The notes beneath the pieces were generated by a model. That model was not told the DNA's origin, ran no database searches, and was given only the letters and a program-made list of their open reading frames with translations. Below, piece after piece: positions 8,378 through 29,588 of a stretch of 29,588 nt of DNA. The position numbers were made by a program, and so were the translations under genes. Each line of letters starts with the position of its first letter. Position 1 is the stretch's first letter. This DNA comes from a virus, in the IMG/VR virus record IMGVR_UViG_3300038696_000424, positions 1 through 29,588 of that record. The stretch is one strand, 5' to 3'.

Positions 8378-9319
8378 CTGTGGACCCTTTCTGTTGGTGG
8401 GATTGGTGCCGCGCGGGGCGGCGGAGAAGGAACGAAATGCGGTGACCGGATCGGCCAACTCGTCGGCCAGACCGGCGGCAATGGCATCGGCCCCGCGAAA
8501 CACGGCGGCCTCTGTGGCCAGCGCTGCCGCGTGGGTCAGCCGATCCCCGCGACCGGCGGCGACAGTTTCGGCGAAGAGGAAGCGCACGACCTCCAGCTCA
8601 CGCTGCATCTGGTTGTGCACGGCCTCGGGCAGCGGCTGATATGGGTTTGCGTCGATCTTGTGCGATCCTGCATGGATCAGTGTGACGGCGATGCCCTTCT
8701 GGTCCAGTGCGCCGCTCATGTCGGTGTGCAGCGCCACGACCCCGATGCTGCCAACAGCCCCGGTGCGCGGTAGAATGATCCGGTCGGCTTGCGATGCCAG
8801 AACATAGCCAGCGGACAGCGCATGTTCCGCCACGAAGGCGTGGACGGGTTTCTGCACCCGTGCCGCCCGGATACGATCAGCCAGATCGAAGGCACCGGCC
8901 ACCTCGCCGCCGAAGCTGTCGATATCAAGAGCGATACCACGCACACTCGGATCCGCGACGGCCGCCTGAAGCTGGGCGGCGATCCCCTCGTAGGAGGTCA
9001 GCCCCGAGGATTGTCCGATCCACGCCCCGCGATGGACCAGCGTTCCGGCGATTTCGATCACGGCAATGCCGTCAGTCACCGCGTAGGGCTGGCTGCCATT
9101 GCGCTGATGGCGCTGGGCGAGGTCATTGCTGAATAGCGATATGCGGGCGGGTAGACTTGCTGCAGTCTGATCTGCGTCTGCCACCTTCAGCCCTTGGAAG
9201 GTGATTTCTTGTCCAGTGATGCGCGGCCCCATTCCGGACAGAAACGCCAGCGCCTTGGCAGGGTCGACCATCAACGGGGTGTTGAAGGCGCGCTGGGCGA
9301 TTTGCGCGTGGTGCATCAT
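7973..9319 (-). CDS. S49-family prohead protease (lambda gpC-like) with scaffold-like C-terminus
   Basis: This 448-residue protein would mature the prohead. The S49/SppA domain spans roughly 80-310: IAVIEIAGTLVHRG, then LDIDSFGGEVAGAF, the nucleophile Ser at about 169 in ALSAGYVLAS, TGAVGSIGVVALHTD, and the catalytic Lys at about 221 in AGSHKIDANPY. From about residue 315 the chain becomes Thr/Pro/Ala-rich, then a helical Ala/Arg/Asp-rich tail ending AKKAAASSR, typical of internal scaffolding regions. Its start overlaps the portal stop by 4 bases (ATGA). The C-terminal part may also be made separately (nested start at 8377). Confidence 0.9.
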   Translation of the reverse strand: MMHHAQIAQRAFNTPLMVDPAKALAFLSGMGPRITGQEITFQGLKVADADQTAASLPARISLFSNDLAQRHQRNGSQPYAVTDGIAVIEIAGTLVHRGAWIGQSSGLTSYEGIAAQLQAAVADPSVRGIALDIDSFGGEVAGAFDLADRIRAARVQKPVHAFVAEHALSAGYVLASQADRIILPRTGAVGSIGVVALHTDMSGALDQKGIAVTLIHAGSHKIDANPYQPLPEAVHNQMQRELEVVRFLFAETVAAGRGDRLTHAAALATEAAVFRGADAIAAGLADELADPVTAFRSFSAAPRGTNPTNRKGPQMTTTPTDTPSPAPVSTSPMTPHTTTTAETAPEQPVEAAASTLTHDATTMTADAVRAEAAEVAQVCAQAARLGVAIDAADAVTRGLKPEALRARVLADLAARSDAAGIIATAPAADAAKDSPIIVAAKKAAASSR

Positions 9320-11025: not shown

Positions 11026-11026
11026 C

Positions 11027-13093: not shown

Positions 13094-13577
13094 GGGTTTC
13101 CAGCACCCTCTGCAGGATCGCGGCCTCGATGATTACCGGTGTTCCGGTTTGTTTTTCAACTCCCAAAGCCACTTCGGCCGCCATCAGCGCCGCCACTCTG
13201 CTGGGCCAGGTCACCCAGACATCGCGTTCCTGTCGCGCAAGCCGAAACACCAGCGTTTCCGCCCGGGCGCGATCAACCAGCGTGCCCTTTTTCTTCTGGA
13301 TCGCCAGTTGGCGTTCCTGCGCCTGATAGACGGTCAGAGCAGTGCGGGCTTTCAGGTAGGACGAGCTGTCCGCTGGACCGCTGAACGCAGCATCGCCGCC
13401 GGTGCTCCGCCGCTGCTGGTCGGGGTCGGTCATATCGGCCCGGCGGATGTCCGAGGCGGCTGCATTGATCGATCCATCACCGTAGACCACCAAACGCCCC
13501 GCCTTGCGTGCCTTCTGGATCGCCCCGCGCGAGATGCCGGAATGGGCGGAATACTCGCGCTCGCTCATTCCTTCCAT
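13041..13577 (-). CDS. Phage terminase small subunit (Nu1-like DNA-binding protein)
   Basis: A 178-residue protein that would recognise cos and recruit the large subunit. It has an N-terminal helix-turn-helix (SEREYSAHSGISRGAIQKARKAGRL), like Nu1, a charged linker, and a helical C-terminal half (LKARTALTVYQAQERQLAIQKKKGTLVDRARAETLVFRLARQ) typical of terminase small subunits of this type. Start could be the ATG at 13577 or the one at 13568; the first has no strong ribosome site. It is the first gene of the leftward late operon, and its upstream region is a divergent AT-rich promoter region. Confidence 0.85.
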   Translation of the reverse strand: MEGMSEREYSAHSGISRGAIQKARKAGRLVVYGDGSINAAASDIRRADMTDPDQQRRSTGGDAAFSGPADSSSYLKARTALTVYQAQERQLAIQKKKGTLVDRARAETLVFRLARQERDVWVTWPSRVAALMAAEVALGVEKQTGTPVIIEAAILQRVLETHVRAQLDALTDLRVDLG

Positions 13578-14126: not shown

Positions 14127-14142
14127 GGCGACCCCGCCTTGA

Positions 14143-14166
14143 GCCTGCCCCGCGATGGCGGGGCTT
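14143..14166 (+). terminator. GC-rich hairpin in the small-gene operon
   Basis: GCCCCGC at 14147-14153, a GATG loop, and GCGGGGC at 14158-14164 form a perfect 7-base stem between the second and third plus-strand genes. It lacks a U-run, so it is more likely an attenuator or mRNA processing/stability element than a full terminator. Confidence 0.4.
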
Positions 14167-14217
14167 GGCCTCATAGAAGCGTGCCGCATTCCGCGCGCCG
14201 TGAACGCAGAGGCCAAC

Positions 14218-14751
14218 ATGACCAAACTTACTGAAACCCAAACCATCATTCTCAGCGCCGCAGCCCAGCGCGCGAGCAATCTCGCGATGCCGCTCCCCAA
14301 GGGGCTGCACGGCGCTGCTGCGAAAAAGGTCATCAGCATGATGATCGAACGCGGCTGGCTCGAGGAGGTGGACGCCGATATGCGCAAGCGCGAGCCACTC
14401 TGGCGCGAGACCGGCGATGGTCACGGAACCACGCTGGTCATCACTGACGCAGGGCTACTGGCCATCGGGGTGGAGCCGGTTGTGGTCAAGACCATGGCCT
14501 CCATTCGCGAAAGTTCTGCCGAGGTGCCGGTTCCGAAAGTGCCAACGCCGCGAACCGGCACCAAGCAGGCGCAGATCATCACCCTTCTACAGCGCCCCGA
14601 GGGCGCTACTATCGCCGAGATTGTCGCGGCAACCGGCTGGCAAGCTCACAGCGCGAGGGGCATGATTTCCGGAGCGCTGAAGAAGAAGCTGGGCCTGCCT
14701 GTTACCTCGGAGAAGGTCGATGGGCGCGGGACGGTGTATCGGATTTCGTAG
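14218..14751 (+). CDS. DUF3489-domain protein
   Basis: A 177-residue protein starting at the ATG at 14218 (MTKLTETQTIILSAAAQRAS). The N-terminal half has a winged-helix flavour (AAKKVISMMIERGWLEEVDA, then LVITDAGLLAIGV). The C-terminal part, after a Pro/Thr linker, is the DUF3489-type domain: GTKQAQIITLLQRPEGATIAEIVAATGW, QAHSARGMISGALKKKLGL and VDGRGTVYRI. This C-terminal domain resembles a small DNA-binding winged helix and is common in alphaproteobacterial prophages near terminase genes. Role may be a transcriptional regulator; this is inference. Its stop forms part of a long inverted repeat with DNA on the far side of the gap. Confidence 0.8.
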   Translation: MTKLTETQTIILSAAAQRASNLAMPLPKGLHGAAAKKVISMMIERGWLEEVDADMRKREPLWRETGDGHGTTLVITDAGLLAIGVEPVVVKTMASIRESSAEVPVPKVPTPRTGTKQAQIITLLQRPEGATIAEIVAATGWQAHSARGMISGALKKKLGLPVTSEKVDGRGTVYRIS

Positions 14752-14842: not shown

Positions 14843-15529
14843 TCAGGCGACTTGGGCAAAGCCCTCTGGCCGAAACCGAACCATCGCCTCGGGGCCGCGG
14901 GGATCAAGGTCGAACAGCGCAGGTCTTGCCTGAAGATAACTGCGCCATGTCTTCTCGGGAAAGGTGCTGATCCGAATGCCATGTTGCACATGCATTTTGG
15001 GCGCGAGTTCAGCAATACGTATCCCAGCACCCTTCTTGCTGTGTACGCTTATCATGGCCCGGATCTTTTCATCCAATTCGGCGACTCCCGCCGGTGTCCT
15101 AGTCACCAGCTTTAGGGCCTTCGGGGTTCCGACCTCCACAAAATGCGAACAGGTGGCTCTGAAAGACTGCGGCGCCTTTGCCTCGCCTATACCGATGACC
15201 TTTGCGCCGTGTTCGCGCAGTCTGAGCGCAAGATGCGTGAAATCGCCGTCGGATGTGGCAATGATGAAGCAATGCATTCCTCTTGAGAGGATCAGTTCCA
15301 TCGCATCAAGGGCGAGAAGAATGTCGGCAGCGTTCTTTCCTGTACCCGCATGAACGAGACGATAACCAATCGAGGCATGCCAGTCTGATGCAAGCTTTGC
15401 ATCCAAGTACGCGCGCACCACAGAAGGGTCGCCGTGCTTCGCGGCAATACCCAGAATGGCTGCGGCGTGTTTCCCGCTGATGTTGTCTCCATCTACAAGC
15501 ACTGCCACAGGCTGAGTCATGTCCATCAC
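14843..15529 (-). CDS. NYN-domain RNase with OST-HTH/LOTUS-like C-terminus
   Basis: A 228-residue protein. The N-terminal PIN-like NYN domain (about 7-135) carries its acidic metal-binding set: LVDGDNIS (D13, D15, N16), NAADILLALDAMEL (D69), and FIIATSDGDFTHLA (D94, D96). The C-terminal segment (about 150-228), ELDEKIRAMISVHSKKGAGIR... IRISTFPEKTWRSYLQARP... FDLD, resembles the OST-HTH/LOTUS RNA-binding fold, usual for this bacterial LabA/DUF88 type. Predicted activity is endoribonuclease on structured or host RNA. Neighbours are DUF3489-like (convergent) and a ParB-methyltransferase upstream, 130 bases away. In a prophage it could act in RNA turnover, host takeover or defence. Domain calls are good, target unknown. 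Confidence 0.85.
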   Translation of the reverse strand: MMDMTQPVAVLVDGDNISGKHAAAILGIAAKHGDPSVVRAYLDAKLASDWHASIGYRLVHAGTGKNAADILLALDAMELILSRGMHCFIIATSDGDFTHLALRLREHGAKVIGIGEAKAPQSFRATCSHFVEVGTPKALKLVTRTPAGVAELDEKIRAMISVHSKKGAGIRIAELAPKMHVQHGIRISTFPEKTWRSYLQARPALFDLDPRGPEAMVRFRPEGFAQVA

Positions 15530-15658: not shown

Positions 15659-16918
15659 TCATGCCGCCAGCCTCTTGGCCTTCAGGTCGGCGAAGGTCTC
15701 ACCCGTTTCGGCCAGCACGGCATTGGCACCAGTGAACTGCTGCCACCGTTCGATGGCCACATCTACATAGGCCGGGTTTAACTCGATCCCGAAGCACACT
15801 CGGCCTGTGGTTTCCGCCGCAATCAATGTTGTGCCCGATCCCATGAAGGGTTCAAACACCGCCTGACCCGGGTTGGAGTTGTTCAGGATTGGCCGCCGCA
15901 TGCATTCGACCGGTTTTTGCGTGCCGTGGATAGTGGCGGCGTCTTGGTCCTTGCCGGAAATGTGCCACAGCGTGGTCTGCTTCCGGTCACCCGCCCAATG
16001 CCCCTTGCCGGTCTTCTTCACGGCATACCAGCACGGTTCGTGCTGCCAGTGGTAGTCGCCGCGGCTGAGCACAAGGCGGTCCTTGGCCCAGATGATCTGC
16101 GACCGCACATTGAAGCCAGCCGCTACAAGGCTTTCAGCCACCGTCGCAGCATGCAGTGCGCCATGCCAGACATAGGCGACGTCACCGGGGAACAATGCCC
16201 ATGCTTCGCGCCAATCGGCCCGGTCGTCATTCAGCACCTTGCCGGTGCGCTTTGTCTTCGCCGCCCCGGCCTGGTTGCGCCAGGACGGGTCATATTCCAC
16301 GCCGTAGGGCGGGTCTGTCACCATCAGCAGCGGTTTTACATCTCCAAGCAGCCGCCCCACCACATCAGCGGACGTGCTGTCACCGCAGATCAGCCGATGC
16401 GATCCAAGTTGCCACAGATCGCCTGCCGCGGAAACCGGCGTGACCGGCGGTTCCGGAATATCATCCTCGCCCTCGACAGCGCCACCTTCCAGCTGATCCG
16501 GATCGCGTAGCAATGCGTCCAGATCCTCGTCAGTGATGCCCAGCAGCGACAGGTCGAAATCCTCGGCCAGCAGCCCCGCGATCTCGTCGCGCAGCATCGC
16601 CTCGTCCCAGTCGCCCAGCTCGGTCAACTTGTTGTCGGCGATCCGATAAGCACGGCGCTCGGCGTCGTCGAGATGGCTCAGCCGGATGACCGGCACGTCC
16701 TTCAGCCCCAACATGGCGGCGGCCAGCACCCGGCCGTGCCCGGCGATCAGCTCGCCATCGTCGGCCACCATGCAGGGCACCGTCCAACCAAACTTCGCCA
16801 TGCTGGCGGCGATCTTGGCCACTTGATCGGTGCCGTGGATCTTCGCATTGCGTGCATAGGGGCGCAGCCGGTCGAGCGGCCATGTCTCAATCTGGCTCGG
16901 CGCAAAGACGAGGTCCAT
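15659..16918 (-). CDS. ParB-like nuclease domain fused to beta-class N6-adenine DNA methyltransferase
   Basis: A 419-residue fusion. Residues about 10-100 are a ParB/Srx-type domain (LRPYARNAKIHGTDQVAKI, the loop ELIAGHGRVLAAAMLG at 56-71, and VPVIRLSHLDDAERRAYRIADNKL). Residues about 165-400 are the methyltransferase: catalytic DPPYG at 202-206 precedes the target region, with HGTQKP at 331-336 and the AdoMet loop FEPFMGSGTT at 355-364, so motif order is beta class, like CcrM-type adenine methylases. Such fusions are common in alphaproteobacterial prophages, where they may protect phage DNA from host restriction. No partner restriction gene is adjacent. The start at 16918 has only a weak upstream purine stretch. 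A strong terminator hairpin lies about 90 bases upstream. Confidence 0.9.
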   Translation of the reverse strand: MDLVFAPSQIETWPLDRLRPYARNAKIHGTDQVAKIAASMAKFGWTVPCMVADDGELIAGHGRVLAAAMLGLKDVPVIRLSHLDDAERRAYRIADNKLTELGDWDEAMLRDEIAGLLAEDFDLSLLGITDEDLDALLRDPDQLEGGAVEGEDDIPEPPVTPVSAAGDLWQLGSHRLICGDSTSADVVGRLLGDVKPLLMVTDPPYGVEYDPSWRNQAGAAKTKRTGKVLNDDRADWREAWALFPGDVAYVWHGALHAATVAESLVAAGFNVRSQIIWAKDRLVLSRGDYHWQHEPCWYAVKKTGKGHWAGDRKQTTLWHISGKDQDAATIHGTQKPVECMRRPILNNSNPGQAVFEPFMGSGTTLIAAETTGRVCFGIELNPAYVDVAIERWQQFTGANAVLAETGETFADLKAKRLAA

Positions 16919-17004: not shown

Positions 17005-17044
17005 GGAAAACGAAAGCGCCCGAGAGGGGTTTCCTCCGGGCGCT
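17005..17044 (-). terminator. Rho-independent terminator, minus-strand transcription
   Basis: AGCGCCCG at 17015-17022 and CGGGCGCT at 17037-17044 pair perfectly, extended inward by GAGG/CCTC around a GGTTT loop with one bulged A. Read on the minus strand the stem is followed by TTTCGTTTTCCCC, a U-rich tail. It would end transcription coming from the DISARM side, insulating the prophage methyltransferase gene. Confidence 0.7.
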
Positions 17045-17104
17045 GTTCTTCGATGATCAATAGGTAGTGCAAGGGGGGCAGCTTTGTCAATTGGAAAACA
17101 GGCT

Positions 17105-17286
17105 TGGATTCAATGGCTTCCGGGTAGGTGGCTTCCTATGGCTGGCTTCCGACTGGGTGGCTTCCGCAAACTGGATTCCCTGGATTCCGAAAAGAATCCA
17201 GCACGGTGAGATCGAGATTCCGCAAGCCTTTGATAATGAGTCGCTTTTTCCGAGATGGAGCGTCAGGTGGCTTCCGCCTGGATTCC
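17105..17286 (+). repeat. Spaced direct repeats of TGG(C/A)TTCC
   Basis: Exact TGGCTTCC occurs at 17114, 17129, 17143, 17158 and 17268; TGGATTCC at 17172, 17181 and 17279; near copies at 17105 (TGGATTCA) and, inverted, at 17194-17200. The first five are spaced 15, 14, 15 and 14 bases start to start. The whole 16919-17475 interval (557 bases) has no supported gene; its content is this repeat block, the terminator at 17005-17044, and otherwise featureless DNA. It occupies the place where drmC would be expected. Confidence 0.7.
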
Positions 17287-17475
17287 CCGGTGAAAGTGCC
17301 TGTCGCTAGCGAAATGCCGCGCTGCGCCCCCCCGCATACGTTCGGGACCGGGGAGGAACCATGCCAAGGGGGCGGGTTGCTTGAGCCGTGCAGGAGAATT
17401 GAAGATCCGAACGCCGACGCCCAGAGGCTTCGTGTCAAGCGCCGGGTTGGTTGTCCAATTTCTTGTTCAGCAGCC

Positions 17476-19326
17476 TCAGGAAAGGGCTGAAGGTAAATCC
17501 GACAACATCAGACGATCAAGCAGCATATTGCGCATTTCGCAGCTCGTTTCTGGCACCAGAAGACAGGCGTTGCACGCGGCACCGTTCACCAATGAGCCAT
17601 CAAAGTGGGCCTGTGGAGTGCTCTCGGAGCAAATCGGGTCGTTTGAGCAAACTTGCATCTTTTCGACTGCTGCGTCCATCAACGTGACGATCTTGGGCGC
17701 CATTGCGACCAGGCCGCCCAACGAACCCTGTGCACCAGATGCGGACGTGTAGATCAGGATGCCGAGGCGGCCGATGGCACCCTTTGTACCGTCTGTTGGC
17801 AAAGCGTACACACGCTCCTTAATGGACGTGGCAGGGTAGCCGCACTGCAAAGCAATCTCGGACATCAGCCCATGTGAAAGCGAATGCAGAAAGGTGTAAG
17901 CTCCGCCAGGGAATGTTGGGGAATTCTTGAATTTTCCAGCCCAGTCCTGATAAGCTAATCGTAGGGCATTAATCCGTTCTGAGTTAAAAGTGGATTGAAT
18001 TATTTTTCCAACCATCTCTGGATCGAACTGCAGGAAAATGCCCTCACCATTTTGTTCGATTGCAGGAAGCCAATCTGCGTCGCCGAGGCTGGCACCCTCA
18101 ACGGCGAGCAGAACTTCTTCCAAACTGCCATCCGAAGCGACTGGGGCAGGCTCTAACCGCGTAAACCCATATAGGCAGGTTACCTCAGTTAGCCGCTTGA
18201 CTGCCACGACGCGAGAAAGCAATCGCTCAAGGCTATTCCCGGTTTTCCATTCAACATCTAGAAGCGTCGTAGCATGCAGCCGGGAGTCTATTGAGTTGGT
18301 GCCTATCGTCGCTTTTCCGGAAGCTAAGATATCGAATTCGGCGATCTTCGGCGAAGAACTTGGAGTGTCAGCTTCCTGATTGGTAGTATCTTTCAGCTCC
18401 TGAATTCTGGAAAAAATTACATTAGGATCAACGTTTCCAAACATATTTGAAAGTGCCGGGCTGAAGCTTAGGACTCCAATAAGCTGATCAACACTCGTGA
18501 GAGGTGCAAGGTTGGCAAGGTTTGCCTTGACTATGTCGCCGATATGATCGGCATCAACAGGTAGGGCTATGACATTTGCGACTTGGGGAAAGTACGCGTT
18601 TGTCGCGCCGCGAACAAGAAGCTTGAGGTTTTCGTTGCAACCGTTTGCATCAACCGATTGATCGCCAAGCCATGGCTGATGACCGTTGCAACCGCCGAGG
18701 ATTCCTTCAGCAAAAAGGTACTCGAATTCAACACGTGCACCGCAGTCGCATTCAATCGATAGGTCTTTTGGGTCTGCACTGGTGCCGCGATCTAAAAACC
18801 ACATTGCAGATCGGCAGCCAGTTTGGCCTTGTCCACGATGAACGAGACCCCGCCAGTTGATATCCTGCATGTGACCTTTTTTGCATGCTGCAACGAACCG
18901 CATTGGGGTGACACTGATGGTCTTGGTTCCATCCTTGAATTTTCCGGTTGCCCATTCAAGTTCTTTCCACTGGACCATTCGTCGTCGCGATCCGCCGGTC
19001 GATGGAGCTGTTCCAGAGTCAGGATCGCAGACAAACCACAGTGGAAAGACCAAGGCCGGGACATCACGCTTCATCCGATCCGCATCATTCGTAGCATAAG
19101 GCGGCTGACGAAGAGTAAGCCTGACTCCTTCGGCGAGCCGCCCACTTTGGGACAGGCTACGCTCAAGCATTTCCTGTAGTCGCGGTTCGACAATGATCCT
19201 TGGCTCTATCTGCTGTCGCCACAACGGTAGGCCACCGACGATGATCGAACGCGAAGGGAGGTCAATCATCGCCCCAGGCCCAAACCCCATGATCATTTGG
19301 CTTAGGCGAATTTCATTATCGCTCAT
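17476..19326 (-). CDS. drmB: DISARM protein DrmB (DUF1998 domain)
   Basis: DrmB partners the DrmA helicase in the core DISARM complex. This 616-residue protein begins MSDNEIRLSQMIMGFGPGAMIDLPSRS and carries an early zinc-like set (ACKKGHMQDINWRG at about 147-159, CDCG at 193-196, further Cys at 213 and 230). The DUF1998 domain lies at about 477-600: AYTFLHSLSHGLMSEIALQCGY, GILIYTSASGAQGSLGGLV, and the Cys cluster C560, C566, C585, C588, C596 (CSNDPICSES, GAACNACLL). Length and order fit DrmB. It starts 9 bases after drmA and is the last gene of the operon. GC is clearly lower than the phage half (about 42% in the line 18421-18480). No drmC follows. Confidence 0.93.
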   Translation of the reverse strand: MSDNEIRLSQMIMGFGPGAMIDLPSRSIIVGGLPLWRQQIEPRIIVEPRLQEMLERSLSQSGRLAEGVRLTLRQPPYATNDADRMKRDVPALVFPLWFVCDPDSGTAPSTGGSRRRMVQWKELEWATGKFKDGTKTISVTPMRFVAACKKGHMQDINWRGLVHRGQGQTGCRSAMWFLDRGTSADPKDLSIECDCGARVEFEYLFAEGILGGCNGHQPWLGDQSVDANGCNENLKLLVRGATNAYFPQVANVIALPVDADHIGDIVKANLANLAPLTSVDQLIGVLSFSPALSNMFGNVDPNVIFSRIQELKDTTNQEADTPSSSPKIAEFDILASGKATIGTNSIDSRLHATTLLDVEWKTGNSLERLLSRVVAVKRLTEVTCLYGFTRLEPAPVASDGSLEEVLLAVEGASLGDADWLPAIEQNGEGIFLQFDPEMVGKIIQSTFNSERINALRLAYQDWAGKFKNSPTFPGGAYTFLHSLSHGLMSEIALQCGYPATSIKERVYALPTDGTKGAIGRLGILIYTSASGAQGSLGGLVAMAPKIVTLMDAAVEKMQVCSNDPICSESTPQAHFDGSLVNGAACNACLLVPETSCEMRNMLLDRLMLSDLPSALS

Positions 19327-19335
19327 TCTTTTTCC

Positions 19336-22300
19336 TTAACTCTTAAGTGGTCGGGCGTTCGGACCACATATGTCTAGCCTGACAACAGGCTCAACATCCC
19401 GCATGGATCGGCCTGCTGTGAAAAGTTGCCGCTCAGGATCAAGTGTTTTGGTTTGGGGATCCAGAACATCTTGCAGCAGGCTGTTTTGCCCCCGCCGATT
19501 ATAGCTGAGCCTTCCGCCGTTTTCTGTCTGCGATGAAGCAGTCCTCGCCCAGATATCTGCAAGCGACGCGATCTGGCGTTCAAGGTCAGCGGGCTCGTCA
19601 GTGAATGGTGCCGCGCGATCCAAGATGTAGGAAAGTGCCCGATCATATACCGTTTCAGGTAGGGTAAATGCCCCGGCCGCTTTGTCACCGCCATACTGGC
19701 TATCAGCATGTCGAATAATCGCTACTACAACTGCAGCCAGAGCTCGATCTAGCGCCCTGTCGGCCCAAGGCGTAACGCTGGTCGCCTCGACGCCGCGGTA
19801 GAAACTTTCATGGAAATACCCAAATCGTTCATAGTGTGCGCGGTCGCGTGGTTTGTGGACGTTCAGCAGAGAAAGAACCAGACCTGGTCGCTGATGGTCA
19901 CGCCCGACGCGGCTGGTCGCCTGGATGTATTCAGCTGTTGCCTTCGGTTGGCCCATAACCACCATTAAACCAAGTCTAGTGATGTCCAAGCCGACCGAGA
20001 TCATGTTCGTTGCAAGAGCAACATCAACGGCGTCTTTTGAGCCCGCTTTTGAGTCGAGCCGTCGTTTCGATTTCGCTACATCGTCGGTGCTTTCGCGCGA
20101 AGTCAGTTCCACCGGTGCTGCGATCTTCCGATTGGCAAAGGGTATATCGGCAGGGTTGATTCTTCGCCTTTCCGTGCCATAGCGCTGGGCGCGGTCACGC
20201 ACTTCGTCTTCCACAATACGTCGAGCGCCACCCAACTCCCGTAACGCATTAAAATAGCACATTGCTGTCATGTACGGATCAGCCGAGTTTCCGTCAGTGA
20301 CCCCTTGCGCGTCGAACTCTGACTGAGCCGCAGCTTCAAGGGTCACGAGCGCGCGCAGGAAAACGAGTTTAGGTCCGCGCCCGAGGGCGGCCAAGCCAAC
20401 GTATTTCCTGGCCGGATTTGCCTCACTGGCCGGAAGTGTTTCTGCGAAGAAGCTGTTGCGGCGACTGATCCCTGGTGGCGGAAAGATAGCAGTTTCGTTT
20501 CGATCAAATAGGGCCCGGATCTGGGTTTGGGCACGTCGAACTGTCGCAGTCGATGCAACGATTTTGGGTCTGATCCTAACGCCACCTTTGGTCCTTGTCG
20601 CCAGATAGTCGATCGCTGTCTCATAGAGACCGGCAACAGTCCCGAGGGGGCCAGAAATTAAGTGCAGTTCGTCCTGTACGATCAGGTCTGGCGGATCAAG
20701 CTTCCAGCCGTTGTTTAGCCTCGCTCCACTTCGAGGTTCGGATGCCCCGTAGAACCCTTGGCCATCTGCGCGATCAACGTGGCCGAAGAATGCACCTGTC
20801 TGCCCGACCCAAGGTAGGGCAGCGAATTTGTCGATGGTCGCTACGATAAACGCAGGCAGTCGGCGATAAATTTCGTCGTCGGTAGCCAAGATTGGCAGCG
20901 CGCGATCTCCGGTGAATTCGCAATCAATATTCGGGCACACGATCAGCATGCGCGATGGCACCTGTTCATTCGGCCAGCATTTAAAGCTGGTATGGTCCAA
21001 GTTGGTGCCGCACCAAGGGCAGTTTCGGATCGGCGCGGGTGCAGGCCCGCTTCTGCGTTTGTAGGCCCGCACCCGCGTCACGGCACGATCATCGCCCGTA
21101 TCGCCCTTGCCACCCAGCTTGTTTGGTGATGCTGCAGAGCCGATCCACAGACCAATCTCGATATCCCAATCGCCGAGCATCCGTCGGCCCTGATCGTCTT
21201 TCCAGGCATCCGAACAACGCATCAGTTCCAAGGCACAGATTACGCCTGCGGCCCGGCCCAACTGATCCAGTGTCAGAAGACGCAGGGTGTAGCGCATAAT
21301 CACTGTCACCCCCGCACCTAACACACCCGATGCACCAAGCCGTCGCAGCGCGATGGTGTAGGCTGCGAGGCCGAGGTAGGCTTCTGTCTTGCCGCCTCCC
21401 GTAGGGAAGAACAGCAGGTCAACGATTTCGCGGTCAGGGTGGGCTTTGTCGGTGAGGCCAGACAGGTTCACCAGAATAAATGCCAACTGGAACGGCCGCC
21501 ATTTCAGCGGGTCGATCTGTTCAAGCGGCACGCCTCGCTCAGACGCGAAGCGGCGACGACCGGCGGTTTCCACCGCCTCGTTCATCGCAACGAATGCCGT
21601 GCGTGCCATGTCGTTGGTCAGCAGCAGCTCGATCCCGGCTTCCATACGCGCCTTGGTCTCAGTCTGGGCTTTGATCAGATCAAGCGCCATGTCGCGGCGG
21701 CGTGGCTCACTTGCGAACTGATCCGCCAAGGGGGATTGGGCGGCGATCCAATCACCATAGTGGAGGGGAAGATCGGCAAGGGCGGCGCGCAGCGGCTCAG
21801 TCCCGGCGCGGGCGGCGTCGCGCAGGGCTATCATGTCGAAGGTCACGCCAGTGATGGACTCGTTCGGGGCGACGCGCTCCACTTCGGCCACCGGCATTGG
21901 CTCGGTGTACACACGACGCACTACGCCGTCGGCGTCTGCCTCATGCGCGCAGGCGGTGTTACGGCCAGCGGCGTATTGCGGGACATCGTGGTAGTGGAGA
22001 TCGTGGGTGCGCAGATCGGCGTCATTGGAACGATAGCCGGTCAGGTCATGGCCTGCGACGATGCCCAGCGCGCAGCCCACCGTCATCCGCACTTGGAACG
22101 CATAGGACATCTCAGCGAAGCGGCGATTGCGGACCACGGCGCGGCGGTTCACCACGAACACAGACAGCGACCAGATATCGACATCCGGCCCCTCGGCCTG
22201 GCGCATCTTGGTTTTGCGGCAGATCATCGACAGGACCAATGCACCGGGTCGATTGATCAGTGTTTTGCTGTCGGGCAGAACCTCGTCCCACTTACCTTCC

Positions 22301-22785
22301 TTCAGCACCAGCGTGTGATCCACATGCCGGGGTTTGCGGCTCCAGCGGACGTCGGGCATGGCTGTGCGGCCCTCGGCCTCCAGGATCGCTTCCGGGGGCA
22401 TCGGCTCGGCGATGTAGTCGCCCCAGTCGAGTGTCACCGTCACTTCGGTCGCCGTGATCGGCAGGGCGGTGGACAGGCCGAGCGAGGTGGGCAGAAAGCG
22501 CTTTCTGGCGGAGTGGTCTTGGGCGGTGCCTTCGTCGTCGGGGGCGGTGCTGGGCGCTTCCAGCCCGGCGAGGGTTTCCTCATGCGGGGCGTCCACGTCG
22601 TCTTCGTCGAGTGGCGATGTGCCGTCCTGCGTGGGGGCGATCCAGCCGGTCAGATACCATTTCGAGGGTTCCTCGGGCAGGATTTCCTCGGCCAGATCGG
22701 CATCTTCCGCGGTGGGATTGGGGCCGATCAGGTCGCGGCGCAGTTTGGTCAATATGGTTTCGCGGACTTCCAAACTCGTCGTCAT
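19336..22785 (-). CDS. drmA: DISARM helicase DrmA
   Basis: DrmA is the DNA-translocating superfamily 2 helicase of DISARM and works with DrmB on incoming DNA. The protein is 1149 residues. Motif I is FFPTGGGKTEAY (459-470); CPWC (589-592) with CPNIDC (617-622) form a likely zinc element inserted in the first RecA lobe; motif II is QDELHLI (704-710), motif III ASTATVRRA (744-752), then ATNMISVGLDI (925-935) and motif VI QATSRVGRDHQRPG (955-968). The N-terminal 400 residues are the less conserved DrmA-specific region. All helicase motifs are intact, so this gene looks functional. Its ATG overlaps the drmMI stop (ATGA). GC falls along the gene, from about 63% at the 5' end to about 55% in the helicase half by eye. 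Confidence 0.95.
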   Translation of the reverse strand: MTTSLEVRETILTKLRRDLIGPNPTAEDADLAEEILPEEPSKWYLTGWIAPTQDGTSPLDEDDVDAPHEETLAGLEAPSTAPDDEGTAQDHSARKRFLPTSLGLSTALPITATEVTVTLDWGDYIAEPMPPEAILEAEGRTAMPDVRWSRKPRHVDHTLVLKEGKWDEVLPDSKTLINRPGALVLSMICRKTKMRQAEGPDVDIWSLSVFVVNRRAVVRNRRFAEMSYAFQVRMTVGCALGIVAGHDLTGYRSNDADLRTHDLHYHDVPQYAAGRNTACAHEADADGVVRRVYTEPMPVAEVERVAPNESITGVTFDMIALRDAARAGTEPLRAALADLPLHYGDWIAAQSPLADQFASEPRRRDMALDLIKAQTETKARMEAGIELLLTNDMARTAFVAMNEAVETAGRRRFASERGVPLEQIDPLKWRPFQLAFILVNLSGLTDKAHPDREIVDLLFFPTGGGKTEAYLGLAAYTIALRRLGASGVLGAGVTVIMRYTLRLLTLDQLGRAAGVICALELMRCSDAWKDDQGRRMLGDWDIEIGLWIGSAASPNKLGGKGDTGDDRAVTRVRAYKRRSGPAPAPIRNCPWCGTNLDHTSFKCWPNEQVPSRMLIVCPNIDCEFTGDRALPILATDDEIYRRLPAFIVATIDKFAALPWVGQTGAFFGHVDRADGQGFYGASEPRSGARLNNGWKLDPPDLIVQDELHLISGPLGTVAGLYETAIDYLATRTKGGVRIRPKIVASTATVRRAQTQIRALFDRNETAIFPPPGISRRNSFFAETLPASEANPARKYVGLAALGRGPKLVFLRALVTLEAAAQSEFDAQGVTDGNSADPYMTAMCYFNALRELGGARRIVEDEVRDRAQRYGTERRRINPADIPFANRKIAAPVELTSRESTDDVAKSKRRLDSKAGSKDAVDVALATNMISVGLDITRLGLMVVMGQPKATAEYIQATSRVGRDHQRPGLVLSLLNVHKPRDRAHYERFGYFHESFYRGVEATSVTPWADRALDRALAAVVVAIIRHADSQYGGDKAAGAFTLPETVYDRALSYILDRAAPFTDEPADLERQIASLADIWARTASSQTENGGRLSYNRRGQNSLLQDVLDPQTKTLDPERQLFTAGRSMRDVEPVVRLDICGPNARPLKS

Positions 22786-25700
22786 TTATTCGTCCTGTCA
22801 AAAAGGGGGCCTTCACCAATATCCAGCGTGCTCTGCTTGGGCCGTTTGCCGGATTGGGCGCCAGAGTGCGGCGCGTCCGGTGCGGTTGCAATGGCGATGC
22901 CTTCATTCGCCTCGGCGGCGAAGCGTTCCCGGTTGAGGTCGAGAAGGCGGGCCAGCACCTCGTCCCGGAAGTCGCTGGGCCAGAACAGGCGGCCCTGATA
23001 GGTGAATTCGGTTTCGGTTTCCTCGGTCAGGAAGACCGTGTTGGCGGCATCGGCCAGATCGTCCCAGCCATACGCACGCAGGACGGCGCAGTCCATTTCG
23101 ACGTGCAAATCGCGCAGGCGCTGGATTTCTGCGTCATCGTCGTAGGAATCGTGAAAGCGATTGTAGGTGGGGGTCAGGCCCTTGTTGGTGGCGATCATCA
23201 GTTGCGCGCGGTGGTCGTGGTAGGCTTGGCCAGCAGCTTCGAGGAAAGGGTTGGCGTCGGACTCTTCGGGAAATGGGAAGGTGGCAAAACAATCTGCTAC
23301 TGAGTAGCGAAGGTCATCCTTCATTGAGGAGGAAAGAAAATTAGCCCAAACCTCATGCGTTCGTGACTGAAGGACGCAAAGTGTAGCGAGTTGCTCGAAG
23401 GCGAATACGACCGACGAGTCAGCGAAAAGCGGGCCAGTAGGCGACCGGCCGATAGCAAGCTTTGTTGAAACTCGACTCAATAAGAAGACGGAGGACAAGC
23501 CATCTATAGCTGCGTTAAGTGCCCCGCCGAAACGCCAATGCTGCCACCAAGCGTGAGCGGCGACAGCTTTGTTCCGAGAATTGATCCGCTCATGCTTTAC
23601 TTTTCGTTCGATGATTTCGAGCAAATCCGGCCAATCCGCTGCAACCGGATACGGATAGTCCGCCGGAACAACACCAGTCCGGATGAATGCTGTCTTGCTT
23701 TTGTCTGATGATCGATGCCAAGGGAAAAGACTTGCATCTCTCCGTAGCGGAAATTCCTCAAAGTCGATCACATACCGATGATAATGGTGACGCGGATGGT
23801 TGTTGACCTCCTCGCCACCAAGGTAAGGCCTGATCCTCTCTGCATTTCGTGGGTCTTTGGCGATCAATTGGCGCATTTCGTCCAGCGAACTTGCTATGCC
23901 CTTTTCGGTGGTTGAATCGTCGAACGTAAATCCCATCCCCAAAACCACAGCACCCTGAAACGCTTTTTCTTCATTTGCTGCCAATGAGATTGGGCTATCA
24001 TCATTCTCTCCGTTTACAAGAAAGGCCGATACACGCGCCACTGCCCGCCCGTCGATCTGACTCTGCGGCACCTGATCTGGCCGCTTAACCCCATGCACCA
24101 CGGACACGACCACCGCCGCCTCGCCCGGCCACTTCAACCGCCGCACCGCGCGATACAGCACCGTGCCATGGGCAATCATCTGCCGCAGCCCGCTTTCGCG
24201 GGTGTCGCCCTGCGCGATGGTGTTCGATGCGATCAGGCCAAAGCCGCCGCCCTTGCGGAGCAGCCCCTCGGCCCGGCGAAAGAAATGCGCCACAAGGTCG
24301 GCGTTGCCATGGGTTTTGTCATGTACCTGTTGCAGCCACTGGCCGTATCCGGCGCGGTTGCCCTTGGCGATGGTGTTCTTGCCCGCAAAGGGCGGGTTGC
24401 CAACAATCAAATCAAAGCCGGGATTGTCGCGCCCGAACACCTCGGGGAATTCGATTTGCCAATGAAAGGGCGCAATGGGATGGTCACCGGTGCGCAATTC
24501 GGCGGCCAAGCTTGCCGCCAAATCCCAAGCGTCGGCGCGGCGCTCGGTAAAGGCGACCTGAAACGCCTGCAGCTCTTTCTTGCGCGCGGTGGCTTTTGCG
24601 GCGGCAAAGAAGGTGGACACCAAAGCATCGCCGACATTGCGGATGGTAGACAAGGATCGTTCCGCCTCGCGCAGCCGCACCTCTTGCAGGGCAAGGGCCA
24701 CATCGTCGGGGGCGCTGCGAATGGCCTGCCGCCCCTCGCGCCACTTTTCCACCCGCTCTTTGATATGCCCGATCAGCAGAGGTTTGGAGATCTTCGGATC
24801 CCAGGTCAGGGTGCCAATCTCGGCTGCCGTAAGGCCCACGAGGCTGTCGCCGGATTTCAGGGCGTGGTCGAGAAAGGTGAATTCATGATCGCGGGCCAGG
24901 GTGGCCAGCCACAGCGACAGCCGCGCCAGATCAACCGCCATGGGATTGCGGTCAACACCATAGAGACAGCGCTGGGCGACCAGGCGGCGGGCGTGCAGGT
25001 CTTCGTCCTCATCCTGCGGCAAGGTGGGGCGTAGGCTGGGGTTCCGCTCCCAAGCGCGGGTCAGCTGGGCCGCGAGCGCGCGGCAGGTTTCGACAAGGAA
25101 GGCACCAGAACCCATCGCGGGATCGCAAACCTTGATGTCGAGGATCTGATCGGGCGTCGGAGTGTCGCCAAGGTGAAGCAGCACAGGCTCCAGCGCCTCG
25201 GCCACAATGGGCTGTGTCAGGCTGCGCGGGGTATAGTGCGATCCGCTTTCGCGGCGTTCATCGGTGGGTTGCAGGATTGGTGTGCCTTTGGGGGCCGCGC
25301 GTTTATGCGGCGAAGCGCGCTCATCGACGATGGCATCAAGGGCAGCGGCCAGAGTTTCGACTGATGTGGCGTTCTTAAGGCCGTCTTCTTGCCGCTTGGT
25401 CAGGTTTGAGCGCTGGCATTCCTCCTTGAGGTATTTCTTGCGATCAGCGGGCTTGCGGACGAGCAGTGCGTCGAGGTCAACATAGACCGGGGTCTTGTTG
25501 TTCTTGCCCGCCTTTATGGCCAGCATCGGGCCGCTGGCACGCTCCACACGGAATCCCATGACGGTTTCATAGACCGAGCCGATTTGTTCGACATCGAGCG
25601 CCTTGTAGGACAGGCGTTCGCCTTTCAGGGACAGAAGCCCTTCCAGTACATTGAGGATGCAATCGTCGGAAATGCGCAATACGCGGGCTTTGTCGTCCTT

Positions 25701-26840
25701 GGCCGTGCGGCCCTGCAGAAACAGAAAGACATCCGGATCGAACAGCCGCCCGCCACGAGACCTGATAAAGCCGCTGCGATGGCCACTGTGAATCATGCCG
25801 AACAGCGCCAGCAGACGGCCCCATCCACCAACCCGTTCATCCATGGTGTCCGGGTTTAGCGCGCGGTCTTCCAGCAGACGGTCATAGAGGCCCCGAGCGG
25901 AGTAGTTTTCGTCATAAAGGATGCGGGCAGAATCCTCGGTCATCGAGGGCAGCAACTCGCGGTCTTCGGCAAAAAGGACAAACACCAAGCGGAGGAGGAC
26001 GGTAAGCAGGCCTTCATAAAGCTGGTCGGGGTCTTCGTCGGCAAGGGTTTCGATCAGCTCACGGGCATCGTCATCAGCGAGAAAGCCTCGCAACAGTTCA
26101 TGCAGGGCACCAAGGACTTGTTCAGCAAGGGTGATCGAGACAATTGCTTGCGCCTCTCGCGAAGCTTTCAGAACTGCGTGCAAACGCATGTTGGCTGGGG
26201 CTGTGAAGAGGCGGTCCGTGCCCAGCGCCGACTTAAGCCCACCCAGCATGGAACGGCCAGCGACCGAGTTCAGATCATGCAGAGGCCAGCCGATCCATCC
26301 TGCTGTTTCACCCCGTGGTGCATAGACAAGTCGTAGCTGCAGGTCGGAAAATAGAATTCCAGCCTCGACGCCGCTTTCGCGAAGCAGGCGTTCAAATCGC
26401 TGCTGGGGCGATGCTTCCCAACCGTCAAGTGCGCCGCGGGCGTCCGGATCAATTCCCGGGTCCTCGGAGCGCACGAGTAAAAGCACTCGATCTTCTGCAC
26501 GAGTGTCGATCAATGCTAAGTCGGCGAAAAGCACGGTGTCCAGCTCTGGAAGAGCCAACGTCGCAAGTTCCGGCAGAGATGGGCCACCGGGAGCGCCAGC
26601 GAGACGACTGACCGGCCAGCCAAGGGCGGACTGCAGAAAACCCAATGGATCAGCAACCGCTGGTTCGTCGCGCGTCGAAGCCAGATGGGCGGCAACCTCT
26701 TGACTGTCAAAGCGCGTTTGCTGAATGGGACTAATGCCAAGATCTTCAAGAATGGGTCTGGCAAAAACCAATCCTTCGCGCTGGACATGATCAAGCCATT
26801 CAAATGGCGCGTATTTCAATGGCTCTGCAATGATCATCAA
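22782..26840 (-). CDS. drmMI: DISARM class 1 N6-adenine DNA methyltransferase DrmMI
   Basis: This 1352-residue protein marks host DNA as self in class 1 DISARM. AdoMet motif I is CDPAMGSGAFL (572-582), preceded by the conserved GSHYTPRSLTQPIV (533-546); the acidic residue follows in LYGVDRNPMAVDLAR (626-640); the catalytic motif is GNPPF (814-818), then FGLIASNTIAQGD (867-879). Gamma-like order (motif I before NPPF) and the large size match Eco57I/PglX-type enzymes. The region about 925-1190 is the probable target-recognition domain. The N-terminal 450 residues are helical with no clear nuclease motif that I can verify. The start overlaps the drmD stop by 4 bases and the end overlaps drmA by 4. 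GC over the putative recognition domain is much lower than on either side. Confidence 0.92.
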   Translation of the reverse strand: MMIIAEPLKYAPFEWLDHVQREGLVFARPILEDLGISPIQQTRFDSQEVAAHLASTRDEPAVADPLGFLQSALGWPVSRLAGAPGGPSLPELATLALPELDTVLFADLALIDTRAEDRVLLLVRSEDPGIDPDARGALDGWEASPQQRFERLLRESGVEAGILFSDLQLRLVYAPRGETAGWIGWPLHDLNSVAGRSMLGGLKSALGTDRLFTAPANMRLHAVLKASREAQAIVSITLAEQVLGALHELLRGFLADDDARELIETLADEDPDQLYEGLLTVLLRLVFVLFAEDRELLPSMTEDSARILYDENYSARGLYDRLLEDRALNPDTMDERVGGWGRLLALFGMIHSGHRSGFIRSRGGRLFDPDVFLFLQGRTAKDDKARVLRISDDCILNVLEGLLSLKGERLSYKALDVEQIGSVYETVMGFRVERASGPMLAIKAGKNNKTPVYVDLDALLVRKPADRKKYLKEECQRSNLTKRQEDGLKNATSVETLAAALDAIVDERASPHKRAAPKGTPILQPTDERRESGSHYTPRSLTQPIVAEALEPVLLHLGDTPTPDQILDIKVCDPAMGSGAFLVETCRALAAQLTRAWERNPSLRPTLPQDEDEDLHARRLVAQRCLYGVDRNPMAVDLARLSLWLATLARDHEFTFLDHALKSGDSLVGLTAAEIGTLTWDPKISKPLLIGHIKERVEKWREGRQAIRSAPDDVALALQEVRLREAERSLSTIRNVGDALVSTFFAAAKATARKKELQAFQVAFTERRADAWDLAASLAAELRTGDHPIAPFHWQIEFPEVFGRDNPGFDLIVGNPPFAGKNTIAKGNRAGYGQWLQQVHDKTHGNADLVAHFFRRAEGLLRKGGGFGLIASNTIAQGDTRESGLRQMIAHGTVLYRAVRRLKWPGEAAVVVSVVHGVKRPDQVPQSQIDGRAVARVSAFLVNGENDDSPISLAANEEKAFQGAVVLGMGFTFDDSTTEKGIASSLDEMRQLIAKDPRNAERIRPYLGGEEVNNHPRHHYHRYVIDFEEFPLRRDASLFPWHRSSDKSKTAFIRTGVVPADYPYPVAADWPDLLEIIERKVKHERINSRNKAVAAHAWWQHWRFGGALNAAIDGLSSVFLLSRVSTKLAIGRSPTGPLFADSSVVFAFEQLATLCVLQSRTHEVWANFLSSSMKDDLRYSVADCFATFPFPEESDANPFLEAAGQAYHDHRAQLMIATNKGLTPTYNRFHDSYDDDAEIQRLRDLHVEMDCAVLRAYGWDDLADAANTVFLTEETETEFTYQGRLFWPSDFRDEVLARLLDLNRERFAAEANEGIAIATAPDAPHSGAQSGKRPKQSTLDIGEGPLFDRTNK

Positions 26841-29479
26841 GTCGCCTCCGGCCAGAGATAAATCAACCCTACCGGTTCAAGACGACAAGCGATGACGTCA
26901 AAGCCTTTACGGATTTTTTCGGGCTCAACGTCGATCTCGGTTAATAAGCGGTCCAGCTTCGCCTGCCAGTGTCTACGGTCAGCATCTACCTGGCGCTGCT
27001 CTTCAAAGTTGAATTCACTCTGTTCTGGTTCGTGCGCTCGTTTCTGCAGGCGTGCGCGTTGGTCGATCAGCAGCTGACGCATGCTCTCCTCTTCTTTCCT
27101 GCCAAGCTCGTGTAGCTGTTCGGTTATAGCTTGGGCTATCGGGGCCGAACGCAGTTCGAACTCAGTGCGCAGGCTTGCAACATCGCTCTTTCGGCGGCTC
27201 AGGGCCTCGGTCGAAATGGCTTCACTCGCCGCTTTCCCATTCCGAAGTGAATCGTCAAGGCTCGTCAAAGTGAGTGCCTCAGCATCCAGTCCTTGGCGCA
27301 GCAGGCGCAATTGTCCATCTGCACCAATGCGCGCTGTTATCGGTATGACTTCCTCGTGCAGGCGTACCCCTTTAGGCCCGTAGAGCGACATTCGACCGAG
27401 GAGGACGACACGCCGCTGTGCGTTGGGCACGAGGAGGACACAAGCGCGGTTCAGGCGGGTACGGAAGCCCTGAGAGACAAACCGAGCTACCAGTCGCCGA
27501 ACCAGCCGATGTTCGACATGCAGATGGCAAACTTCGGGTGCATCTCTTTGATCAGCCAAGATAACTGGATCGAAGGACAATCGCTTTAGCGGCTGTGCTG
27601 CCCTCCACTCGTTCAGCTTTTGTCCCTTAGCGGGTGGAGCAAGACGTAAGTCATCCAAGATGGGTGCCCATCCTGGCCCAGAAAATACCGGATCGTTTTC
27701 CTTGATCGTGAATACCTTGGCGCTGGGCACTGCCGACACTGACGAATCTGTCATCTGCCCACCCGCTTGCGAAAGAGCGATTCCAATGACTTGCTGAAGA
27801 TCGCCGCCCTCAATGCCAACGCGCCGACGTGAATCCTCTAGCGTCTTGCGAAGTTTGGCATTCTGCTCGCCAACTATCTTGCGGCGTTTTTCTTCGCTGC
27901 CATTCAAAGCCCGAATCTCGTCGCGATATGCAGCGGTTTCGTCGTCACTCTCCAGCTCCGCCACCAGTGCTACAGCCCTGTCGCCTCTGATGCCCTCGGA
28001 CGTCAGACGTTTCATCAAGCGATCTTCGATAACACGACCGACGGCACCAAGCTCATTCCTTATTCGCTCAGTCTTGCGAACCAATGCAGCTTGTACAATG
28101 TCCGTGGGACGTTGTGCGTACCTGAAGTAGCGGCAGAATACCGTTGGTGCTGGCTGCAACTTTCTGTCGATGCGACCATTCCTTTGTTCCAAGCGCGATG
28201 GGTTCCACGGAAGGTCAAAATGGATCAGGTCATGACAGCCCTTCTGAAGGTTGATCCCCTCCCGCGCCGCGTCGGTGCAGATCAGCAACCTCAATGGGCT
28301 CTCGGTCGGGTTGCAATTGAAAGCGAATTTGATGCGCTCCCGATCATCCAATGAAGTCATACCAGTGAGGCTTGAAACGTGTTTTTCAGGATCGAGGTCA
28401 TCAAGAAGCTCAAGCAGGCGATTTTGTAGCCACAGCCGCGTATCTTGGTACTCTGTGAAAACAATTAACCTGCGGTTGTTCCAATGCCCGTTAGATATCA
28501 TGTTTTCACGAATCCAAGATGCCATCCATCTGACTCGAGCATCTGGTTTCAGGCTGGCCTTGCGTGCGACTTCCAACATCGATTTCACGAATGCCTTTTC
28601 GTCTTCGACGATTGGTTCTGTAGCCCCTAAGAGACCTACCTTGGTTGCCGCGATAACGAGGCTTGGATCATCATCAACGTCATCGGTTGTGGCCAAAGAA
28701 TAGTTAAGGTCATCCTCATCAAACCCGTCCATCTCCTTTCCATCTGCAAAGGTCGTCGCCAACGAACTGAGCGTTGAACGCTCAGATTCGGTGGGAGCTT
28801 TCATGGCCCGCAAATGAACTTCGAGTGTTTTCTTGAACGCTTCTGGCGATGATAGAAGCCGCTGCTGTAACCCGGAAAATATCAGCTTACCTTCCGCCCG
28901 TGCACGGGCGGTCATGGCGTGAAGCCGAGCGTCTCGCATCGCGCCATAGAATTCCAGCATTTCCGAGAGCTGTAAATCAGCAGCATCAATTGCCAAGCCA
29001 TCAATTTTGATTTCTTCGACAATACGCTCTGGAAAATGCTCGCCCAGCGCACGGAGATCCGATTTCAGTCGCCGAACCATAACGGGTTCTAAATCGGCTG
29101 TCTCCACAGGAACTCCACGCGTAAATCGGTGCGGATCAAGAATCTCTAAAAGTGCAGTGAAACTGTTTGAATGACCATTGTGCGGAGTCGCACTGAGGAA
29201 CAAGCGATGTTCAAAACCTTGTGCAATATCGCGTATCGCCCGGGTGAATTGGCTGTCTATGGCATAACGACCTCCGCTGGCGGGGGCGGCATGATGCGCC
29301 TCATCAAGAATCAGCATCGAGTTCGACCGCATTGAGCCGAGAACCTCTCGCAAGCCCGAGGCGTAGGTCTCGTCAGCTAGAAGGCGGTGAGAAACTAGAA
29401 AGCAAGACCCAGAAGCCCATGGGTTGGTGCCGAAGCCTCGCCTTCGGCGAACCTGAGCTAAATAACCTGAATCGGTGAC
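26837..29479 (-). CDS. drmD: DISARM SNF2-like helicase DrmD, 5'-truncated
   Basis: DrmD is the class 1-specific SNF2 helicase. The open frame runs from an in-frame stop at 29480-29482 to 26837, about 880 codons. The first usable start is a TTG at 29353, but homologous-looking coding sequence begins earlier (GYLAQVRRRRGFGTNPW, FLVSHRLLADETYASGL). Motif II is LDEAHHAAP (near 29300), motif III LSATPHNGH (near 29190), and the second lobe has LIVFTEYQDTRLWLQ, CTDAAREGINLQKG and the motif VI segment LPWNPSRLEQRNGRIDR. Motif I (Walker A GKT) and the whole N-terminal portion are missing, cut at about 29476-29480 by foreign-looking DNA. The C-terminus (CRLEPVGLIYLWPEAT) is intact. Without motif I the ATPase should be dead, unless a rearranged 5' part is supplied elsewhere. 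Confidence 0.88.
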   Translation of the reverse strand, partial: VTDSGYLAQVRRRRGFGTNPWASGSCFLVSHRLLADETYASGLREVLGSMRSNSMLILDEAHHAAPASGGRYAIDSQFTRAIRDIAQGFEHRLFLSATPHNGHSNSFTALLEILDPHRFTRGVPVETADLEPVMVRRLKSDLRALGEHFPERIVEEIKIDGLAIDAADLQLSEMLEFYGAMRDARLHAMTARARAEGKLIFSGLQQRLLSSPEAFKKTLEVHLRAMKAPTESERSTLSSLATTFADGKEMDGFDEDDLNYSLATTDDVDDDPSLVIAATKVGLLGATEPIVEDEKAFVKSMLEVARKASLKPDARVRWMASWIRENMISNGHWNNRRLIVFTEYQDTRLWLQNRLLELLDDLDPEKHVSSLTGMTSLDDRERIKFAFNCNPTESPLRLLICTDAAREGINLQKGCHDLIHFDLPWNPSRLEQRNGRIDRKLQPAPTVFCRYFRYAQRPTDIVQAALVRKTERIRNELGAVGRVIEDRLMKRLTSEGIRGDRAVALVAELESDDETAAYRDEIRALNGSEEKRRKIVGEQNAKLRKTLEDSRRRVGIEGGDLQQVIGIALSQAGGQMTDSSVSAVPSAKVFTIKENDPVFSGPGWAPILDDLRLAPPAKGQKLNEWRAAQPLKRLSFDPVILADQRDAPEVCHLHVEHRLVRRLVARFVSQGFRTRLNRACVLLVPNAQRRVVLLGRMSLYGPKGVRLHEEVIPITARIGADGQLRLLRQGLDAEALTLTSLDDSLRNGKAASEAISTEALSRRKSDVASLRTEFELRSAPIAQAITEQLHELGRKEEESMRQLLIDQRARLQKRAHEPEQSEFNFEEQRQVDADRRHWQAKLDRLLTEIDVEPEKIRKGFDVIACRLEPVGLIYLWPEAT

Positions 29480-29588
29480 CTAACCCCTGCCAACCCATTT
29501 TACGGCCTCGATTTTCACAATGCCGCCGCAAAATCTCGTAGACGTCCCTGTCTAATCTCGTCGTTACACTAAACAGGCCCACATGCAG
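29476..29588 (+). mobile_element. Possible terminus of an IS21-like insertion sequence interrupting drmD
   Basis: Directly upstream of the broken drmD frame the DNA changes character. Starting with TGACCTAACCCCTGCC at 29476, it continues with short repeated phrases (CCCATTTTACGGC, GATTTTCACAATGCCGCCG, AATCTCGTAGAC, then TGTCTAATCTCGTCGTTACA) and has two copies of AATCTCGT. The TG start, internal repeats and the GTCTAAT phrase resemble ends of IS21-family elements, from memory. The element would extend beyond the right edge; an ATG at 29583 may be the first codon of its transposase but this cannot be tested here. The minus-strand open frame at 29373-29582 crosses the junction and is probably meaningless. 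Confidence 0.4.

What the first reader, a model, noticed from the sequence alone, without database searches (positions are those of the whole stretch)
17476..29479. Class 1 DISARM operon directly abutting a lambda-like prophage
drmD-drmMI-drmA-drmB are present in the class 1 order with 4-base overlaps, and the next gene downstream on the same strand is a typical prophage ParB-methyltransferase. DISARM loci are known as chromosomal defence-island systems; finding one apparently within, or at the edge of, a prophage raises the possibility that a temperate phage carries it as cargo, giving the lysogen broad superinfection immunity. The right prophage boundary is not visible, so the alternative is integration of the phage next to an existing defence island.
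Basis: partly seen in the sequence, partly recalled or inferred. Interest (0 to 1): 0.75.

Follow-up and report, generated by a model that had tools for sequence, protein, structure and literature searches.

The report
Class 1 DISARM carried by temperate phages
A large bacterial anti-virus gene cluster (DISARM) sits inside the genome of a virus that can lie dormant in marine-type bacteria, in a slot beside the virus's DNA-packaging site where related viruses carry other anti-virus systems.

Summary
Window 17476-29465 encodes drmB, drmA, drmMI and the C-terminal part of drmD; drmC is absent. Phage packaging, head and tail genes fill the rest. DISARM is inside the phage. Two other assemblies (Yoonia vestfoldensis DSM 16212; uncultured MAG contig G003:C122) carry the same operon with late phage genes on one side and phage replication and integrase genes on the other. 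Across 57 sequences, phage conservation stops at one box (window ~17279-17372). Its profile matches the physical DNA ends of three Rhodobacter RcC phages, so the box is cos, not att. The interval between cos and conserved gene phrog_9306 is a cargo slot: 0.16-9.4 kb in 17 other phages, 10 of which carry recognised defence genes there (type I/II/III RM, Mza, SoFic, PrrC). DrmMI's specificity half is recombined between phages (0 of 2000 permutations). In the window drmD is cut 123 bp before the record end by unrelated DNA; in Yoonia an IS3-type element splits drmB; the MAG copy is intact. Class 2 DISARM in archaeal proviruses and cos-side hotspots in P2/P4 are published, so this is a new member of known kinds. 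Activity is untested.

The parts
17476..19326 (-). drmB (616 aa, MZB/DUF1998)
   Evidence: PADLOC DrmB 9e-82, Pfam MZB; 84-94% identical in four other assemblies
19336..22785 (-). drmA (1149 aa, helicase)
   Evidence: PADLOC DrmA 5e-253; 98% identical in Yoonia, 92% in MAG G003, 89% in Roseovarius L082
22782..26840 (-). drmMI (1352 aa, type IIG-like N6-adenine MTase, NPPF at residue 815)
   Evidence: PADLOC DrmMI E=0, Pfam Eco57I/MmeI_Mtase/MmeI_TRD, motif
23299..24432 (-). recombined segment of drmMI (about residues 803-1181: MTase C-part and target-recognition domain)
   Evidence: Window vs Yoonia 96-100% aa before it, 34-68% within and just beyond it (residues 801-1238); 0 of 2000 permutations reach the observed score
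26837..29465 (-). drmD, C-terminal part only (SNF2-type helicase)
   Evidence: PADLOC DrmD from profile position 252; 98.3% DNA identity to Yoonia drmD up to 29466
29466..29588 (.). unrelated 123-bp end that interrupts drmD; nature unknown (insertion end or assembly junction)
   Evidence: No continuation in any frame; no match to relatives, plasmids or 395 family genomes
17279..17372 (-). conserved cos region; inferred cut between 17334 and 17335 with an 11-base overhang at 17324-17334
   Evidence: Abrupt end of phage homology in many loci; HMM of 57 sequences matches only the joined physical ends of three RcC phages, E 3e-8 to 4e-6
15659..16918 (-). ParB-domain DNA methyltransferase, first gene after cos
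   Evidence: phrog_498 2e-154; 80 best relatives kept from viral contigs
14843..15529 (-). NYN-domain protein
   Evidence: Pfam NYN
14155..14751 (+). DUF3489 protein
   Evidence: Pfam DUF3489
13041..13577 (-). terminase small subunit
   Evidence: phrog_57
11027..13093 (-). terminase large subunit (lambda gpA type)
   Evidence: GpA_ATPase and GpA_nuclease; 62% identical to RcC phages
9316..10806 (-). portal, lambda family
   Evidence: Phage_portal_2
7973..9319 (-). S49 head maturation protease
   Evidence: Peptidase_S49, phrog_53
6481..7503 (-). major capsid protein E
   Evidence: Phage_cap_E 3e-105; 100% identical in Yoonia
5530..6159 (-). DUF6441 protein
2997..3935 (-). tail tube
   Evidence: Phage_tube_2
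2..1990 (-). tape measure protein, cut by the record end
   Evidence: phrog_8462

Best explanation
The DISARM operon is cargo inside a temperate, lambda-like, cos-packaged siphophage of Rhodobacterales. It occupies a variable slot between the early genes (integrase, excisionase, O-like replication initiator, phrog_9306) and the cos site, so it is packaged as the right end of the linear genome. In a lysogen the expected mode of action is the published one. DrmMI methylates self DNA, DrmAB with DrmD loads on unmethylated, single-strand-bearing foreign DNA and blocks it, and competing phages are excluded. Exchange of DrmMI's specificity half between phages would change the self mark, so related DISARM phages would no longer recognise each other as self. 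Shown: gene content, location inside the phage, cos homology, hotspot turnover, DrmMI recombination. Inferred: expression, activity, specificity change, packaging. The copy in this record is probably inactive because drmD is broken.
For: Same DrmB-cos-MTase order in the window, Yoonia and MAG G003; a fourth assembly, L085, has DrmB-cos without MTase. Integrase, O-like initiator and phrog_9306 lie directly beyond drmD in Yoonia and G003, with an excisionase identified in Yoonia. The order Int-Xis-Olike-p9306-[variable]-cos-MTase recurs in other phages, with intervals from 160 bp to 9.4 kb. PADLOC defence genes occur in 10 of 17 complete intervals. The cos profile matches RcC physical ends, which have 11-base 5' overhangs (PMC8601537). 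DrmMI mosaic. Mechanism from PMC9142583.
Against: No att repeats were found for the Yoonia prophage, so exact prophage ends are not defined. drmD is truncated here and drmB is split by an IS3-type element in Yoonia, so only the MAG copy looks intact. L085 has host-type genes soon after drmB-cos, which implies decay or misassembly there. Roseovarius L082 carries the same DISARM beside conjugation genes, so this DISARM is not tied to the phage.
Confidence: 0.88

Rival explanations
1. The phage integrated next to an existing chromosomal DISARM island and the two are only neighbours.
For: DISARM is usually chromosomal or on plasmids; Rhodobacteraceae have other, more distant chromosomal DrmB copies.
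Against: Integrase, excisionase and replication genes of the same phage kind lie beyond drmD in two assemblies, and the boundary box is cos, not att.
Confidence: 0.04
2. The junction is an assembly chimera of a phage contig and a bacterial DISARM contig.
For: The record ends in 123 bp of unrelated DNA; metagenome assemblies can be chimeric.
Against: The drmB-cos-MTase junction recurs in an isolate genome and a MAG, with 80-96% DNA identity to Yoonia across it.
Confidence: 0.02
3. The phage-borne DISARM is a decaying passenger that gives no protection in most carriers.
For: Two of three phage copies are interrupted: drmD in the window, drmB by an IS3-type element in Yoonia.
Against: All four genes are full-length frames in MAG G003. 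Outside the interruptions the window and Yoonia frames are open and mostly about 98% identical. The DrmMI exchange kept open frames, which suggests recent selection.
Confidence: 0.3

Closest known systems
Class 1 DISARM (drmD, drmMI, drmA, drmB, drmC)
   Same: Same four genes in the same order; strong PADLOC matches
   Different: No drmC beside drmB (published as dispensable and often missing, PMC9142583); located in a temperate phage
P2-like phage and P4 satellite anti-phage hotspots beside cos (PMC9122126)
   Same: Variable defence cargo between conserved phage genes, next to cos
   Different: Different phage group (lambda-type terminase, Rhodobacterales); larger cargo, up to about 12.5 kb with DISARM
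Class 2 DISARM in Woesearchaeales tailed proviruses (PMC11705971)
   Same: DISARM inside a tailed provirus
   Different: Class 2, archaeal host, no hotspot described in the passages read
Rhodobacter capsulatus phages of cluster RcC (PMC8601537)
   Same: ParB gene, TerS, TerL directly after cos; TerL about 62% identical; homologous cos
   Different: RcC ParB gene has no fused MTase in the annotation; no DrmA match in the phage collection

Membership tests
Class 1 DISARM | drmA helicase and drmB (DUF1998/MZB) core | tested here: met
Class 1 DISARM | drmMI adenine methyltransferase | tested here: met
   PADLOC DrmMI E=0, Eco57I/MmeI domains, NPPF motif
Class 1 DISARM | drmD SNF2-type helicase, complete | tested here: inconclusive
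   Only the C-terminal part in the window; complete in Yoonia C17 and G003 C122
Class 1 DISARM | drmC PLD nuclease | tested here: not met
   No gene between drmB and cos/MTase in window, Yoonia or G003; reported as dispensable and often missing (PMC9142583)
Class 1 DISARM | restricts phages | not testable with these tools
   needs experiment
Phage-borne defence hotspot | variable content between conserved phage genes | tested here: met
   17 intervals of 0.16-9.4 kb between p9306 and cos
Phage-borne defence hotspot | defence genes common in the slot | tested here: met
   10 of 17 with PADLOC matches at 1e-5 or better, one more weak, 5 none, 1 empty
Phage-borne defence hotspot | cargo travels in virions | not testable with these tools
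   no virion sequencing data
Lambda-like cos siphophage | gpA-type terminase and lambda-family portal | tested here: met
Lambda-like cos siphophage | cos site | tested here: met
   By homology to sequenced RcC ends only
Temperate phage | integrase and excisionase | tested here: met
   In relatives; the window itself is cut before this region
Temperate phage | att sites | tested here: inconclusive
   No convincing repeat found for Yoonia prophage 1

The most novel reading that the evidence does not exclude
Temperate phages of Rhodobacterales use class 1 DISARM as an inter-phage weapon whose self mark is switched by recombining the specificity half of DrmMI, so that closely related cos phages carrying the same DISARM exclude one another.
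Probability: 0.3. Interest if true: 0.75.

Novelty: new member of a known kind. Interest (0 to 1): 0.58.

Why it matters
DISARM is among the largest anti-phage systems and is described mainly from chromosomes. This shows a natural route for class 1 DISARM to spread in temperate phages and names the slot where it sits, beside cos, where other defence systems come and go. The slot gives a way to find new systems in many Rhodobacterales prophages. The recombined DrmMI half makes a question testable: does DrmMI alone set what DISARM treats as self?

Tried and rejected
att core in 16919-17475: rejected, because the conserved box matches phage physical ends. tRNA at the boundary: none in the window or in the related loci scanned. 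Identity of the 123-bp right end: no match in plasmids, relatives or 395 family genomes, left unresolved. Att repeats for the Yoonia prophage: the longest match was a chance-like 16-mer. DrmA in isolated phage genomes: no match. Distant DISARM-like cores in other viral contigs were not pursued; L133 sits beside GTA-type tail genes and may not be a phage. A first attempt at the DrmB alignment failed on coordinates and was repeated.

Full report
What is there. The window is a complete 29,588-bp IMG/VR record with no end repeats. On the - strand, PADLOC profiles identify DrmD, DrmMI, DrmA and DrmB, then a ParB-domain methyltransferase and a lambda-type late region: TerS, gpA-type TerL, lambda-family portal, S49 protease, capsid E, tail tube and tape measure. 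drmMI/drmA overlap by ATGA, drmD/drmMI by 4 bases only if TTG is the start, and drmA/drmB are 9 bases apart. There is no drmC. drmD is broken: the match starts at profile position 252, no frame continues it, and DNA identity to the intact Yoonia gene (98.3%) stops at window 29466. The last 123 bp match nothing found.

Is it inside the phage? A scan of viral contigs with DrmB found one close relative, and a scan of genome contigs found five loci. In Yoonia vestfoldensis DSM 16212, DrmB is followed by the same MTase and late genes at 93-100% identity. The rest of the operon is on scaffold 17. The two scaffolds end in the two halves of an IS3-type element inserted in drmB at the equivalent of window 18888/18890 (IS3 assignment is mine from the translated ends), which also shows they adjoin. 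In MAG contig G003:C122 the whole unit is on one contig with full-length drmD. Beyond drmD both carry phrog_9306, an O-like replication initiator and a tyrosine integrase; an excisionase was identified in Yoonia, with a tblastn match in G003. DISARM is therefore enclosed by phage genes.

The boundary is cos. Comparison with the MTase loci from viral contigs shows that homology to the window stops abruptly at about 17372 in most loci that extend that far. A profile of 57 such boxes was searched against available parts of Rhodobacter phages RcBaka, RcHotPocket and RcFrancesLouise with their ends joined. The only significant matches span the physical ends (E 3e-8, 3e-8, 4e-6). These phages have 11-base 5' overhangs (PMC8601537), and RcBaka begins with a ParB gene, TerS and TerL. 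By homology the window's cut lies at 17334/17335.

The slot. The order Int-Xis-O-like-phrog_9306-[variable]-cos-MTase recurs. In 17 phages where both flanks are held, the interval runs from 160 bp (L073) to 9.4 kb (L027). Ten hold PADLOC-recognised defence genes: type I RM (L014, L022, L035 with PrrC, L056, L063), type II RM (L017, L051), type III RM (L027), Mza-type (L008) and SoFic (L068). L012 is a weak SIR2-like case, five had no match among the proteins tested, and L073 is empty. Several other phages have more than 9.5 kb before cos, so DISARM's roughly 12.5 kb is large but not isolated. Yoonia carries a second prophage of the same kind with other cargo. A comparable slot beside cos is published for P2-like phages and P4 satellites (PMC9122126).

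DrmMI recombination. Window and Yoonia DrmMI are 96-100% identical over residues 1-800, 34-68% over 801-1238, and about 90% after that. The window is instead 96-100% identical to G003 over about 801-900. Informative DNA sites place a G003-like segment at window 23299-24432; none of 2000 permutations came near it. The segment covers the NPPF motif region and part of the MmeI-type target-recognition domain. I infer a change of methylation specificity; this is untested.

How it most likely works. From published work, DrmAB is activated by DNA with 5' single-stranded overhangs and less by methylated DNA, and DrmC is dispensable (PMC9142583). A DISARM lysogen should thus exclude incoming unmethylated phages, including cos phages with 5' overhangs such as its own relatives, while DrmMI protects self. 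Expression, activity and packaging are inferred. The window's copy is probably inactive.

Comparison with the known. DISARM in a provirus has been reported (class 2, Woesearchaeales; PMC11705971). My literature searches were limited to an open-access library and found no class 1 DISARM in a cos-side phage slot. The same DISARM type also sits beside conjugation genes in Roseovarius (L082), so it moves between kinds of mobile element. I rate it a new member of known kinds.

Noticed in passing
L082 (Roseovarius sp. EGI FJ00037), 91-14485: The same DISARM type (DrmA 89% identical) lies beside TraG-type coupling protein, signal peptidase and RPA-type replication initiator genes, so it also travels on a conjugative element or plasmid.
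   Followed up: partly
L085, 140-10712: DrmB then the cos-side sequence, then a DUF3489-like gene and host-type metabolic genes with no MTase or late genes: a decayed prophage or a misassembly.
   Followed up: partly
G002:C17 27972-72493 (L100-L102): A second prophage of the same kind in Yoonia with different cargo (HATPase proteins); a TmtA-like 1495-aa defence protein lies just beyond its integrase.
   Followed up: partly
L137 (same contig as L060): A distant DrmB (29%) with a downstream gene near the other end of a phage of this kind, suggesting a second cargo site at the tail end. Yoonia C24 has a TIR-like gene (1915-3252) in a similar place, judged by eye.
   Followed up: no
L133, 3-16657: DrmMI-DrmA-DrmB-DrmC beside GTA-type tail genes in a record classed as viral.
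   Followed up: partly
window 4585-5511 (+): A 308-aa + strand frame among the tail genes with weak endonuclease VII-like matches, in a stretch without similarity to Yoonia: possibly a mobile endonuclease insert.
   Followed up: no
L003, L004, L005 and others, just downstream of the ParB-MTase: Many of these phages carry a second, diverged copy of the ParB-MTase gene directly after the first.
   Followed up: no
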